From Oscillochloris sp. (GTDB lineage Bacteria; Chloroflexota; Chloroflexia; Chloroflexales; Chloroflexaceae), in assembly GCA_012032775.1 (NCBI GenBank), contig JAAUQO010000005.1:1-64000 (forward strand): a DNA stretch of 64,000 bases. Direction: 5' to 3'. The notes beneath the pieces were generated by a model. That model ran no database searches. It was not told where the DNA came from and saw nothing but the letters and a program-made list of their open reading frames with translations. The position numbers and the translations under genes are program-made. Below are positions 23,987 through 30,360 of the stretch, piece after piece (position 1 is the stretch's first letter; each line of letters begins with the position of its first letter).

Positions 23987-24287
23987 CGTAGCCTCCTGGC
24001 ATTTCATTGTTGCGCGCAGTATAGCGGTCGATGCACTGCGGCGCAACCGGCGCGACGCAAACTGCTGTGTTCCATCCGGGCCTGATACCTGCCTGAAAAT
24101 CGTGCCCCGGTCATCCAATTGTCATCGTACGCAGTGTTGTAGTGGTTATGGTGTCGTTAAGATAAGCGCGAGTTCAATCCGAAGCGATTTCGATGACATG
24201 ATCTTCGCCGGTAGTCAGCGATCATCGCAAAGGAACCCGTGCAGAAATTCTGCATTCTGCATTCTGAATTTCCCCATGGAGGCTGCG
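23987..24287. other. Intergenic region with TGCATTC repeat
   Basis: A 301 nt stretch between the divergent pabA and PGRP genes. I see no gene in it. At 24243-24271 GAAATTC and GAATTTC enclose three copies of a TGCATTC-like unit, related to the palindrome at 19015-19041. Promoters for both genes must lie here, but no clear -35/-10 pair is seen. Confidence 0.5.
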
Positions 24288-27187
24288 ATGCTGTTGCGTC
24301 TGCGTATTCTTTTTATACCACTTTTTATTGCAGCGCTTCTAGTACTCGTGTCGATCGCCGGACGTAGCGACGCCGGGCCGACCGTCGATACAGCTACCGG
24401 TCGTCCTGAACAGGTGGCGCTGACAACAATCCCTACGGAAGGCGCATCACTTTTGGCGTCCCTCGGCGCAAGCTACCTTTCGCCGGTGCAGGCGACGGCT
24501 ACCCCGTTCACTCATATACTCCTACGTTGGGAGGCACTGGTTCCCGCCGGCGCCCATGTCCACATCGAAGTTCGCGCCAGCTTCGACGGCATGGATTGGA
24601 CTCCCTGGGGCGAGGTGTTGGAAAACCCCGACCTATGGGTGCCGGCCGATGGTGATTATGTCTTCTGGAGCCAGGAGATCTACGCCGGCGAGGGAGTGCA
24701 ATTCTGGCAGGTGCGCGCCCAGACGAGCCGGCTCCTGATGGAATGCTGCCGCGCCTCGATTCGATCGAAGTCAATACTGTCGATGCCCGCTTCGGCTCGT
24801 CCGACCCCTTGTCGGCCGCCAATTTGCAACATTCCCTTGCCGGCTTCGACAAGCCGCCGGTAGTGAGCCGGAGCGCCTGGGGCAGCCCCGACGGCCAGGG
24901 CAGTCGGGTGAATCCGGCCCACTACCCGGTTACGCATATGGTTATTCACCATACCGCCGACTCGAACAGCCTGAGTGGCAGCCAGCAGAGTTGGGCCGAC
25001 CGGGTGCGCGCGATCTGGTCGTTTCATACCTACACCCGCGGCTGGGGCGACATCGGCTACAACTACCTGATCGACCCGAACGGCGTGATCTACGAGGGCC
25101 GCGCCGGTGGTGATGATGCGGTCGCCTTTCACGATACCGCCAACTACGGCTCGATGGGGATCGTGCTGATCGGCACGTATTCCAATGTCGATCCGCAGGC
25201 TGCCGCGCTCAACAGCGCCGTGGATCTGCTGACCTGGAAAAGCGCCCAGAAGCGGATCGATCCCCTTGGCCGGGCCTTCTACTATGGTTGCTCGATCTCG
25301 AAGTACTGCAAGCCCTTCACCCCCGGCTCGATCGCCGAGACGATCTCCGGCCACCGCGATGCCACACCCGGCCGTACGTCTTGTCCCGGCGATCGGCTGC
25401 ACAGTCGCATTCCGGAGTTACGCCAGCGTGTCGCCAACCGCCTCGCCGGCCTGCCGGAAGCCGCTGCCCCCGACAACGGCGATCTCATTATCGACGATCT
25501 GGAGGGTCGGTTTACGCGCAACAGTGCCAACTGGTATGGTGCCTGCGGTTACGGCGGCAGCAGCGTCTATACTTATTCCACCGACAACCCGGCTGAGAGT
25601 AGCAATAACGCCGTCTGGACGCCGAACATCCCGGCCGATGGCCAGTACCGAGTGCTGGTGCATATTCCCGAGGGCTGTGATCAGGCCACGCCGACAAGTC
25701 AGGCCCGTTACCGGATCAACAGCGCCGACGGCGAACGCGAGGTGCTGATCGACCAGAATGCGCGCCGCGGCTGGATTGAGTTGGGCAGTTTCCGCTTTAC
25801 GACCGGCACCAATGGTTCGGTGCAACTGAGCGATCTTACCGGCGAACCGCTGAGCGCCGGGCGGGTGGTCTATTTCGATGCCGTGCAGTTCGTGAAGGAA
25901 GACGGCGCGCGGATCGAGTTGCTGGCGGTGCAGGCCGAGCAGACCAGTGTCGCCGCCGGCGAGTTGCTGAAAGTAACTTTTACGGTGCGCAACAGCGGCA
26001 ATGGCCCTGCCGAGACCCAGGATCCGCAGGCCGGCACCAACTCCGATGCGCAAGGCAGCTACGACAGCGCCAACGGCTATGTCTACGACGAGGGCGAATG
26101 TTTCCTCGGCGCGCCCGAGCAGGATTATCCGATCTATCCGAAGCAAGGCGGCAGTTTCCGGCTCACCCTCGGCCCGATCAATCGTGGCGTCGCCTGCGCC
26201 GGTGAGAGCGGCGGTTATCCCTGGCGTTGGGGTTTGAATGGTTCGCTGGCGCCGGGTGAGACCCGCGACGTGATCGGCTACGTACGGTTCCGTGAGCCGG
26301 GACAGGTGCAGTTGCAGGCCGGCGTGATCCGCGAATATGTCGCATATCTGGCGCAAAATGTTGTTCTGCCGACGATCACCGTTACTCCGGAGCGTCAGTC
26401 CCCGGCGCCGGCTGCATTCAACGAAAACCTGCAACCACTGGCCCATGTCTATCGCTTAGGGCAAATGCCCGACAACTTGCTGGCCCGGACGCACAATCCG
26501 CTCTCGATTGTGAAAGGCGAGTTGCTGGGCAGTTTCGTCTGGAGCGGCGAATTACGCGAGTGGGGCGACGGTGGACCGTTGCCGGGCGTGAGCGACGGCT
26601 TTGTGATCGAGCAGACGCGGGTTTTTGTGGCGCCGTTGGATGGCGAATATACCTTCAGTGTCACCAGCGACGACGGCGCATGGTTGTGGGTGAACGGCAG
26701 ACCGCTGGTGGTCAATGCCGGCTTGCACAATGCCGAAAGCGCTACCGGAACCATCTATTTGCCGGCAGGGCGCCATGTGCTGGGCTTCAAATACTTCGAG
26801 CGCGGTGGAACGGCGGTGGCCGGCTACGCCGTACAGCATCCCGGCGAAAGCAGCTTCCGCACGCCGGTCGATGGCCTGGCCGGTGTGGGTGGCGGCATCG
26901 ATTTGCGCATTGGAACCGGCTTTCGGCGCCTGCAAGGGCTGACTCTTGCCGCCGACGATCTGGGCGGCAGCGGCGCGGCTTTGTTGCGAGCCTCATTCGA
27001 TGGGATCAGTTGGTACGACTTGCCGGGCGGAATGATAAATATGGGCGAGTTAAGCGCGGGCGAATACCATCTGCGCTATCGAGCCGTAGACGCGGCGGGC
27101 AACGAATCGCCGATTACGGAACTGCATTTCCGCGTCGATCCGGCGCTCCGCGAAGAACAGATCTTCCTGCCGTTACTGGCAAAATGA
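24288..27187 (+). CDS. Secreted PGRP-type amidase with golvesin-like and PA14 domains (frameshifted)
   Basis: A large exported protein, 966 aa once a missing base near 24729 is restored (frame 1 ends QVRAQTS, frame 2 resumes PAPDGMLPRLDS). It begins with a signal helix. A peptidoglycan-recognition / N-acetylmuramoyl-L-alanine amidase domain lies at about 190-385: VIHHTAD, GWGDIGYNYL, and the Zn ligands HRD and C in SGHRDATPGRTSCPGD. A golvesin-type beta domain follows (YSTDNPAESSNNAVWTPNIP), then an unclassified Ig-like region, a PA14 lectin-like domain (VTSDDGAWLWVNG) and a last Ig-like strand set. It probably cleaves peptidoglycan stems while bound to a surface glycan. GGAGG fixes the ATG at 24288. 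Confidence 0.85.
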
Positions 27188-27226: not shown

Positions 27227-28227
27227 TCAACCCCGTTGTTTAAAGATCGACAGGTGCATTTTGGGATCGTGGTCGCAATTGCTGCACACACCATTACTCA
27301 TCCCGACGGTGCGTGCGACGCCGTTCGTCCGTGTGATCAAAGTCGCCTGGCAATTTGGGCAACGGGTGGCCTGATTGGTTTCGGCGCCTAGATAAATTGC
27401 AGGCCGTTCTCGTGGCCGAGCCGGCGGGCGCGCATCACCGCCGCAGCCGTCTCGCTGCCGGCATCGCCGGGCAAAACATGCCATGGCGTATGGGCGCCGA
27501 GCGAATCGCGAATCCACTCAATCAAGGCCCGTAATTCATCGCTGTCGTCGTTCACGCCGTGATGAATCCGCGTCGTCACCTCCACATGGCAACGCCAATG
27601 AGCGCGGGCATGGACAGTTGTTTCCAAGATTCCACGCCAGTCAGGGATCCCGCCGAGCCGATTGTACGCTGAGTCGGAGAAGCCGCGTAAGTCAAGGCTC
27701 ACGCCGTCGAGATAGGCCCCGAGGGTATCAAGTGCTTCAAGCGTAAGATAGCCGCTGGTGGCGAGGGCGGTATAACGGCTTGAGGCCCGCGAGAGTTGCA
27801 GCAGCGCCAGTACATACTCGAAATTCACCGCTGGCTCGCCGTAGGCCCAGATCACCCCACGACAAAGCCGTTCCAGGGCGAAATTCGCCGCCCGATCCGG
27901 ATCGAGCCGGCGTTGGAGCGTCGGATCTTCCGGGACGAAGGCATACTGTCCGCGCTGCTGATCCACAGGCAGCGCGTAGCCCCAGCCGCCGATCGATAAT
28001 GCCAATGAGTCGGGAAAAAAATGCCAGAGCCGGTGATCTTCGATCGGACCGATCGCAGCTCCACTGATAAGCCCATGATTGAGAAGCTCAATTCCTTCAG
28101 GATGGCCCCTCCGCACCTTGCATTGGCCGGCTTCACCCACGGCTGGAGTGCAGCCCCAACGGCAGGCAAGACAGGTCGGGGGATTGTCGGCGTTGGGCGA
28201 GATGAGATCGGCGAACGAGACACTCAT
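27227..28227 (-). CDS. Radical-SAM-like protein lacking the CxxxCxxC motif (frameshifted)
   Basis: By sequence a relative of the AmmeMemoRadiSam-type radical SAM enzymes. It keeps the N-terminal Cys cluster (Cys19, 22, 26, 36 in CLACRWGCTPAVGEAGQC), the TIM-barrel segments VIWAYGEPAVNFEY and GVSLDLRGFSDSAYNRL, and the C-terminal zinc ribbon CPNC...CSNC. But where relatives have GCNxxCxFCQN the sequence is SIGGWGYALPVDQQRG at about 79-92, with no cysteine, so the SAM [4Fe-4S] cluster should not form. The frame stops at LQFI (27388) and the ribbon continues in another frame; a missing base near 27396 restores 333 aa. No MEMO or AMMECR1 partner is nearby. Confidence 0.75.
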
Positions 28228-28395: not shown

Positions 28396-29148
28396 ATGGA
28401 ACAACCACCACGCCGGATTGATGGCGATCCTCGCAGCGACCTGATCGCCGATAACGGCCGCTGGGAACCGGTTTCCGCCGACGAACAGACAACATCCATC
28501 GCCCAACGCACGCGGGTGCGTAGTGTCGTCCGCGAGTTACTCGAGACGGCGATCTTTATTCTGCTGGTATTTTTTATTGTGCGCGGCATTGTGCAGAATT
28601 TTAAGATCGAAGGTTCCAGTATGGAACCGACATTACACACCGGCCAATATATCCTTGTCAATAAGCTGGTCTACTTTCACTTTGATTTGAATGCGCCCTT
28701 GCGCTTGCTGCCGGGCCAGGAAGATTTGCCGCAGCGCATTATTTACCCCTTTCATCAGCCGCAGCGCGGCGATATCGTCGTTTTCGAGTATCCCCGTGAT
28801 GTGAGTAAAGACTATATCAAGCGGGTGATCGGCTTGCCCGGCGACCGTTTGCGCGTGAACGATGGGAAGGTCTTTGTGAACGGCGAGCCGCTGGATGAAG
28901 TGTATTTGCAGGGCGCCTCGACCTATTGTGTGTCCGGTTATCAGTGTCACGACGAAGAGTTGATTGTTCCCGAAGGGACGATTTTCGTCATGGGCGATAA
29001 TCGGGCCAATTCCAGCGATTCACGTGAGTGGAATGCGCTGCCGCTGGATCGGGTCGTTGGTCAGGCCTGGGTGATTTATTACCCGATCGCGGATTGGGGG
29101 CTTGTTCCGCACTACGAGTATTCGGCTGAACGAGTGGCTATTCCGTGA
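28396..29148 (+). CDS. lepB: Signal peptidase I
   Basis: A 250 aa membrane serine peptidase that removes signal peptides from secreted proteins. One membrane helix (ETAIFILLVFFIVRGIV, about 50-66) is followed by the catalytic Ser in GSSMEPTLHTGQ near 75, the Lys base in DYIKRVIGLPGD near 138, and the family box MGDNRANSSDSR near 198. Normal length and order. The N-terminal 45 residues are cytoplasmic and charged. It is followed after 64 nt by a glycosyltransferase gene. Confidence 0.95.
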   Translation: MEQPPRRIDGDPRSDLIADNGRWEPVSADEQTTSIAQRTRVRSVVRELLETAIFILLVFFIVRGIVQNFKIEGSSMEPTLHTGQYILVNKLVYFHFDLNAPLRLLPGQEDLPQRIIYPFHQPQRGDIVVFEYPRDVSKDYIKRVIGLPGDRLRVNDGKVFVNGEPLDEVYLQGASTYCVSGYQCHDEELIVPEGTIFVMGDNRANSSDSREWNALPLDRVVGQAWVIYYPIADWGLVPHYEYSAERVAIP

Positions 29149-29212: not shown

Positions 29213-30360
29213 ATGCACGTCGCGATCAACGCTCATCTGCTGGCCCATACACGCTCGTTTCGCCGCGCCGGGGTTTCGCACTATATCGAACAGGTTCTGC
29301 ATCAGCTCGGGCAGATCGATCGGCGGAATCGCTACACGATCTATACCACCCGTGGCCTCGACCAACATGCGCTCGGCCTGCCGGCCAACTTTCAGGTGCG
29401 GCCGAGTAGCTTGCCAACGATCAATCCCCGCGTCCGCATCCCCTGGGAACAGTTGCTTGCGCCGCTTTTGCTCAGGCGCAATCAGGCCGATCTGTTTCAC
29501 GGAGTGTTGAATGTGGTGCCGCTGGCCTGTCCGGTGCCGAGTGTGGTGACGATCCACGATCTGGCCTTTATTCGCTTCCCACAGACGTTTCGCGCCTATA
29601 ATCGCACCTATCTCGATTTCGCCACGCGCCTGACGGCCCGCCGCGCGGCCCGGATTCTGGTTGTTTCCGAGCATACCAGGCGCGAGGTTGTCGGGTTGTT
29701 GGGGGTGCCTGCGGAGCGTGTGATCGTGACGCCGAATGCTGCGCGCGCCCATTTCCAGCCGCCGGCCCCCGGCGCTGTCGATCGTCTGCGGCGCGCCACG
29801 GGTTGCCGGATCGCTTCGTGCTCTATGTCGGCACGCTCGAGCCGCGCAAAAATTTGCCCACGCTGCTGGCCGCATATGCCGATGTCGCCCGCCAACACCC
29901 CGATGTGCCGCTCCTGGTTGGCGGCGGCAAGGGCTGGCTCTACGATTCGATCTTCGCCCAGCTTGAAGCATTGGGATTGCGCGATCAGGTGCGCTTCGTC
30001 GGCTATATCGATGAGGAGGAGTTGCCGCTCTGGTATGCCGCCGCGACCGTCTTCGCATTTCCCTCGACCTACGAAGGTTTCGGCATGCCGCCGCTTGAGG
30101 CAATGGCCTGCGGCACCGCCGTGGTGACATCCAATAGCTCCAGTTTGCCCGAAGTGGTTGCTGAGGCCGGGTTGATGGTGCCGCCGACCGACGCCTCCGC
30201 TCTGGCCGATGCGCTGAATCAGGTGTTGCGTGATGCCGATCTGCGCACGGAACTTGTGGCCCGTGGGCTTAAACGAGCCACGCAGTTTAGTTGGCGCGCG
30301 ACCGCCGAAAAGACGCTTGCCGCGTATCATGATGTTGCCGTGGAGCATGGTCGCTTGTAG
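29213..30360 (+). CDS. GT4-family glycosyltransferase (frameshifted)
   Basis: A family 4 (GT-B) retaining glycosyltransferase, probably acting on lipid or surface polysaccharide. Frame 1 starts MHVAINAHLLAHTRSFRRAG and gives the N-terminal Rossmann domain (LFHGVLNVVPLACPVPSVVT, HDLAF, VSEHTRREVV). It loses frame after LRRATG at about 29802. Frame 2 continues LPDRFVLYVGTLEPRKNLPT, then the donor-binding EGFGMPPLEAMACGTAVV with its Glu. Adding one G to the G-run at 29800-29802 gives a normal 382 aa enzyme. The donor sugar is unknown. Confidence 0.88.

What the first reader, a model, noticed from the sequence alone, without database searches (positions are those of the whole stretch)
27227..28227. 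Radical-SAM-like protein that has lost its [4Fe-4S] ligands
The protein keeps the N-terminal Cys cluster, the barrel core and the C-terminal zinc ribbon of AmmeMemoRadiSam-type enzymes, but the CxxxCxxC motif region reads SIGGWGYALPVDQQRG without cysteine. The loss is in a well-read frame far from the frameshift at ~27396, so it is not a reading error. It could be a neofunctionalised fold that binds a substrate or SAM without radical chemistry.
Basis: partly seen in the sequence, partly recalled or inferred. Interest (0 to 1): 0.7.

Follow-up and report, generated by a model that had tools for sequence, protein, structure and literature searches.

The report
Cysteine-less radical-SAM protein of Chloroflexia
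One group of bacteria, the class Chloroflexia, carries in most of its sampled genomes a protein built like a radical-forming enzyme that lost all three iron-sulfur-holding cysteines in a common ancestor yet is still strictly conserved, so it probably now does a non-radical job that nobody has worked out.

Summary
Window 27391-28227 (-) encodes a 279-aa protein related to the radical-SAM enzyme of the AmmeMemoRadiSam system. The CxxxCxxC loop reads GGWGYALPVDQQRG. The same loss is found in all 37 representatives from seven family-level groups of the same class (53 of 61 genomes searched in the order carry the gene). They form one clade (bootstrap/SH-aLRT 100/100) nested among Cys-containing AmmeMemoRadiSam enzymes of other Chloroflexota, which mostly sit beside Memo and/or AMMECR1; 34 control proteins from another phylum all keep the motif. 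The gene is under strong purifying selection (dN/dS 0.014-0.12). Besides the cysteines, Chloroflexales members lost the EKKP motif, the DLK lysine and the SRFxP loop, so radical chemistry is very unlikely. They keep the N-terminal Cys4 motif, the barrel (model pLDDT 89; nearest solved fold PFL-activating enzyme) and the C-terminal Cys4 ribbon. Partner genes survive piecemeal: Memo in one lineage, AMMECR1 in another, none in about 30 genomes including this one. Best reading: an ancient, single-origin pseudo-radical-SAM protein working as a binding or scaffold protein; partner or ligand not identified. The window copy also carries a frameshift near 27391-27397, probably an assembly error.

The parts
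27391..28227 (-). Cys-less radical-SAM-fold protein, main open frame (279 aa; stop TAG at 27388-27390)
   Evidence: Pfam Radical_SAM 38.6 bits over cut-off 29.5; TIGR04337 121.8 bits, below cut-off 220
28120..28173 (-). N-terminal Cys4 motif, residues 19-36 (C-x2-C-x3-C-x9-C)
   Evidence: four Cys invariant in Cys-less clade, nearest Cys-containing relatives and canonical families
27949..27990 (-). former cluster-binding loop, residues 80-93 GGWGYALPVDQQRG (CNFHCxxCQN in nearest Cys-containing relatives)
27832..27849 (-). GGE-type motif at the end of strand 2, residues 127-132 WAYGEP (YNEP in nearest Cys-containing relatives)
27391..27397 (-). frameshift in the window's copy, separating barrel from C-terminal ribbon
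   Evidence: relatives read through as one frame of about 330 aa; profile match continues in the other frame
27230..27397 (-). C-terminal Cys4 zinc-ribbon-like part in the shifted frame (CPNC...CSNC)
   Evidence: conserved in relatives
28396..29148 (+). signal peptidase I (lepB), divergent neighbour conserved across most of the clade
   Evidence: (named from its translation)

Best explanation
This is an orthologous family confined, as far as sampled, to class Chloroflexia. It descends from the radical-SAM subunit of an AmmeMemoRadiSam (rSAM-Memo-AMMECR1) operon and lost the three [4Fe-4S]-binding cysteines once, in an ancestor of the class. [Shown by tree, alignments and operon comparison.] Without that cluster, and in Chloroflexales also without EKKP, the DLK lysine and the SRFxP loop, it cannot make a 5'-deoxyadenosyl radical by the known mechanism. 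[Inferred from the family's chemistry.] Strong purifying selection and retention where Memo, AMMECR1 and canonical rSAM are all missing show that it has a function of its own. [Shown that it is kept; function inferred.] Most likely it works as a pseudoenzyme: the two Cys4 metal sites hold the ends of a folded barrel that binds a ligand or partner protein (perhaps what the ancestral enzyme bound), acting as an adaptor or sensor without radical catalysis. [Inference; ligand unknown.]
For: All 37 Cys-less representatives form one clade (SH-aLRT 100); 26 of them in a careful tree have 100/100 and 100% of bootstrap trees, with the loop columns left out. The nearest relatives keep GCNFHCxxCQN and most sit beside Memo and/or AMMECR1. 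dN/dS 0.014-0.12 for close pairs in Chloroflexales and f6, the same range as the canonical paralog (0.056-0.11). The replacement loop is itself conserved: WGY and R91 in all 23 f1 and f4 representatives, same length. No alternative cysteine triad: C121 is the only conserved cysteine in the barrel. AlphaFold2 model of a full-length ortholog has pLDDT 89.4, with the loop block at about 87; best solved match PFL-activating enzyme, Z 19.6, 216 residues at 2.8 A. About 30 of 53 genomes with the protein have no Memo, AMMECR1 or canonical rSAM. G064 holds a likely relic: next to an intact Memo (APHAGY, ACGYGP kept), with one Cys left (GNNLAC).
Against: No ligand, partner or phenotype was identified, so adaptor/sensor is inference. 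Partial retention of SAM-type motifs ((F/Y)xEP, TxG, DLR) could mean SAM is still bound. The relic lineage f8 rests on one draft genome with 6% contamination.
Confidence: 0.62

Rival explanations
1. It became a different, non-radical enzyme: the barrel acquired a new active site, for example for an anionic or phosphorylated ligand, using newly fixed arginines.
For: Chloroflexales members gained or fixed arginines at positions 111, 122 and 150 and mostly 180 and 219; the remodelled loop is strongly conserved; H213, E215 and N225 are invariant and H249 nearly so.
Against: From topology, several gained residues (122, 146, 150) lie at the start of strands, away from the usual active-site mouth, so they may form a surface patch. 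No known catalytic motif was recognised. 3-D positions could not be checked.
Confidence: 0.2
2. It remains a structural subunit of an AmmeMemoRadiSam-like complex, working with Memo or AMMECR1 without radical chemistry.
For: It is followed directly by Memo in one lineage and by AMMECR1 in the family f3 genomes searched.
Against: About 30 of 53 genomes with the protein, including the window's, have neither partner, so this cannot be the general function.
Confidence: 0.1
3. Radical-SAM chemistry persists through other cluster ligands, such as the N-terminal Cys4 motif.
For: Four invariant N-terminal cysteines; the (F/Y)NEP and TNG motifs are mostly intact in the deep-branching members.
Against: The same four cysteines are present in relatives that also have CxxxCxxC, and four Cys leave no open iron for SAM. 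EKKP, the DLK lysine and SRFxP are also lost in Chloroflexales.
Confidence: 0.05
4. Sequencing error, local mutation or pseudogene in this genome.
For: The window copy has a frameshift, and two neighbouring genes look frameshifted too.
Against: The same loss in independent genomes of seven family-level groups, with open frames and dN/dS well below 1.
Confidence: 0.01

Closest known systems
AmmeMemoRadiSam system radical SAM enzyme (TIGR04337), Cys-containing form in other Chloroflexota (e.g. L160-L182)
   Same: N-terminal Cys4, barrel, HxEVT strand 5, W/H of PWH, C-terminal Cys4 ribbon; the clade nests among these
   Different: CxxxCxxC and EKKP present; usually beside Memo and/or AMMECR1; the two members scored reach 283-309 bits against cut-off 220, the Cys-less ones 122-195
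Pyruvate formate-lyase activating enzyme (3c8f)
   Same: Same radical-SAM fold, Z 19.6 over 216 residues; only sequence match in PDB
   Different: Has CxxxCxxC and the SAM-binding residues, no Cys4 ends; activates a glycyl-radical enzyme; 15% identity
Radical-SAM proteins of FtsH-ternary conflict systems (PMC7159879), perhaps L131 here
   Same: Described there as related to the Memo-AMMECR1 rSAM family; L131 branches close to the Cys-less clade and lies next to AAA ATPase genes
   Different: L131 keeps all three cysteines; no such neighbours at the window locus
Pseudoenzymes in general (reviews PMC5106787, PMC10211241)
   Same: Catalytic motif lost, fold and gene kept
   Different: No pseudoenzyme of this radical-SAM subfamily turned up in the held literature

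Membership tests
AmmeMemoRadiSam radical SAM enzyme (TIGR04337) | score over NCBI's curated cut-off (220 bits) | tested here: not met
   121.8 bits for the window protein; 134-195 for other Cys-less members
AmmeMemoRadiSam radical SAM enzyme (TIGR04337) | CxxxCxxC [4Fe-4S] motif and EKKP motif | tested here: not met
   GGWGYALPVDQQRG and EDHRL
AmmeMemoRadiSam radical SAM enzyme (TIGR04337) | N-terminal Cys4 and C-terminal Cys4 ribbon | tested here: met
   both present, the second in a shifted frame in the window copy
AmmeMemoRadiSam radical SAM enzyme (TIGR04337) | descent from the family | tested here: met
   nested among Cys-containing members, 99/96 and 100/98 at the enclosing branches
AmmeMemoRadiSam system | Memo and AMMECR1 in the same genome | tested here: not met
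   neither found in the window's genome (93% complete)
Radical SAM superfamily (PF04055) | domain score and fold | tested here: met
   38.6 bits over 29.5; fold of the ortholog L042
Radical SAM superfamily (PF04055) | three-cysteine CxxxCxxC cluster motif | tested here: not met
   no cysteine in the loop
Radical SAM superfamily (PF04055) | [4Fe-4S] cluster and reductive SAM cleavage | not testable with these tools
   biochemistry needed
Radical SAM superfamily (PF04055) | SAM-binding residues (GGE-type, strand-4 DxK, strand-6 motif) | tested here: inconclusive
   (F/Y)x(E/D)P kept, Lys to Arg/Tyr/Asn, SRFxP loop lost

The most novel reading that the evidence does not exclude
A radical-SAM barrel was turned, once and over a whole bacterial class, into a non-radical functional protein with a newly evolved ligand- or partner-binding site where the iron-sulfur cluster used to be, and it outlived the AmmeMemoRadiSam operon it came from.
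Probability: 0.4. Interest if true: 0.75.

Novelty: new variant of a known kind. Interest (0 to 1): 0.55.

Why it matters
What the AmmeMemoRadiSam proteins do is not known: the NCBIfam model is only a 'hypothetical equivalog' and no functional study turned up in the held papers. Two of the three have human homologs (MEMO1, AMMECR1; own knowledge). A lineage in which the radical centre was lost once while the scaffold, and in places Memo or AMMECR1, was kept separates the radical from the non-radical part of that system. It gives a cluster-free, probably oxygen-stable version to study in Chloroflexus or Herpetosiphon. It is also a class-wide case of a radical-SAM protein that lost its cluster and stayed under selection.

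Tried and rejected
Local error or pseudogene as the cause of the Cys loss: rejected. Migrated cluster ligands: only C121 is conserved in the barrel. Regulatory partner of a canonical paralog as a general role: most genomes have no paralog. Functional link to signal peptidase I: divergent adjacency is conserved, but no mechanism follows and it may be plain synteny. Loss of a conserved Cys in the neighbouring AMMECR1: RGC becomes RGS in only two of the distinct f3 sequences examined, not general. Sampling of family f8 for more relics: only one genome held. Literature: searches for AmmeMemoRadiSam and for radical-SAM pseudoenzymes gave nothing on this family; the 2019 paper cited as Burroughs et al. 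in PMC7159879 appears not to be held (one DOI from memory tried). The scan of all GTDB species used short peptides of the window protein only, so distant Cys-less relatives in other phyla could have been missed; only one other phylum was sampled as a control.

Full report
Observation. The minus-strand ORF 27388-28227 (stop included) encodes 279 aa. It matches Pfam Radical_SAM above its cut-off (38.6 against 29.5 bits). Its best NCBIfam model is TIGR04337, the AmmeMemoRadiSam radical SAM enzyme, at 121.8 bits, far below that model's cut-off of 220. The four-Cys N-terminus is intact. The stretch that should read CxxxCxxC reads GGWGYALPVDQQRG. The C-terminal CPNC/CSNC part lies in another frame, so the assembly has a frameshift at about 27391-27397. 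Relatives read through as one frame of about 330 aa, and a family profile continues directly in the shifted frame. The glycosyltransferase and the peptidoglycan-recognition gene nearby are also split over two frames although relatives have one, so an assembly error is likely. It has no bearing on the cysteines. The genome holds one copy only.

A shared loss. Of 61 genomes (own, family and order), 55 have a match, and 53 have this ortholog (the best matches of G052 and G060, at 78 and 107 bits, fall in the range of the canonical paralog). In all aligned orthologs the three cysteines are missing. A class-wide search added further family-level groups (f6, f8, f9) with the same loss. A phylum-wide search found a second group at 246-319 bits that keeps GCNFHCxxCQN. 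It lies beside Memo and/or AMMECR1 in most loci examined. A paralogous canonical form (CNLGCRFCQN) occurs in 15 of the 53 genomes. As a control, the 34 loci read from another phylum, among them the 30 best matches of the search there, all keep the motif.

One origin. With the loop columns removed, 37 Cys-less representatives form one clade (SH-aLRT 100). A careful tree of 61 rows gives 100/100, and 100% of 200 bootstrap trees have it. The clade sits inside Cys-containing sequences, so the cysteines were lost, not never present. The earliest lineages are f8, f9 and f6; the f8 protein L125 keeps one cysteine (GNNLAC) at the middle ligand position.

Selection. Pairwise Nei-Gojobori dN/dS is 0.014-0.12 among close relatives, the same range as for the canonical paralog. 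The former cluster loop is not drifting in f1 and f4: WGY and R91 occur in all 23 representatives, without a gap. In f2 and f3 it is more variable (WGT, FGT).

What else changed. In Chloroflexales, EKKP became mostly E-(D/E)-(H/Y)-R, the strand-4 DLK lysine became Arg (f1, f4) or mostly Tyr (f2, f3), and SRFxP after strand 6 was replaced by a loop about seven residues shorter (LPGDAG in most). YNEP became (F/Y)x(E/D)P. R122, S149, R150 and the RAxSR motif were fixed. In the deep lineages NEP and TNG are mostly intact. Conserved throughout: both Cys4 motifs, H68, P71, G79, G82, R105, R122, H213, E215, N225 and W237. C121 is the only conserved cysteine in the barrel, so there is no migrated ligand triad. 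Positions relative to the barrel mouth are inferred from strand order, not measured.

Fold. The AlphaFold2 model of the Chloroflexus islandicus ortholog (L042) has mean pLDDT 89.4; the block holding the former cluster loop scores about 87. The corresponding loop in a model of a Cys-containing relative (L046) is poorly predicted (blocks at 46-58). That contrast may partly reflect the alignment, which is mostly Cys-less. The nearest solved structure is PFL-activating enzyme (Z 19.6, 216 residues, 2.8 A), which is also the only sequence match in PDB.

Surroundings. The gene is divergent from signal peptidase I in the window and in nearly all loci of f1, f2 and f4, in half of the f3 loci, and in loci of f6, f8 and f9. 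No such neighbour was found beside the Cys-containing relatives. In the f3 genomes an AMMECR1 gene follows directly. In the single f8 genome a Memo gene with its conserved His and Cys motifs follows, then a protein kinase. In f6 and f9 a protein kinase with a beta-propeller follows, with a PP2C gene after it in at least one. Memo is absent from the f6 and f9 genomes that carry the gene, and both Memo and AMMECR1 are absent from the window's genome. About 30 of 53 genomes have the Cys-less protein with neither partner and no canonical paralog (my count).

Reading. The ancestral AmmeMemoRadiSam operon decayed in Chloroflexia. The radical-SAM gene lost its cluster ligands early, and the partners were lost unevenly afterwards. 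The protein kept the scaffold and both Cys4 ends under strong selection. Loss of radical chemistry is inferred from motif loss, with high confidence. A binding or adaptor role is my best guess, at moderate confidence. Whether it still binds SAM is open.

Limits. Genomes reached through the genome search carry group codes, not names; the family names used here (Chloroflexaceae, Herpetosiphon and so on) are inferred from named loci (Chloroflexus, Oscillochloris, Viridilinea and Chloroflexales MAGs) and from genome size. One other phylum was sampled. The f8 relic is one draft genome.

Noticed in passing
window 29213-30360 (+) and 24102-27187 (+): The glycosyltransferase and the PGRP/PA14-like gene flanking the locus are each split across two frames although relatives have one, which suggests several indel errors in this assembly.
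   Followed up: partly
L127 5232-8985, L124 3-3775, L126 118-3289: In deep-branching members the Cys-less gene is followed by a Ser/Thr kinase with PQQ-type beta-propeller; PP2C-like and von Willebrand-like genes lie beyond it (kinases and one PP2C checked by Pfam, the rest read from sequence).
   Followed up: partly
L131 3-4981: A Cys-containing rSAM close to the Cys-less clade lies downstream of two AAA ATPase genes and an unknown protein, resembling the FtsH-ternary conflict systems of PMC7159879.
   Followed up: no
L042 7027-9528: In Chloroflexus the Cys-less gene is followed by a peptidase U32/DUF3656 gene, a family often tied to iron-sulfur-dependent modification (own knowledge).
   Followed up: no
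genus group g21 of family f4 (G039, G058, G121-G153): A genus of about 3 Mb genomes in the order lacks the Cys-less gene in all members searched; an apparent secondary loss.
   Followed up: no
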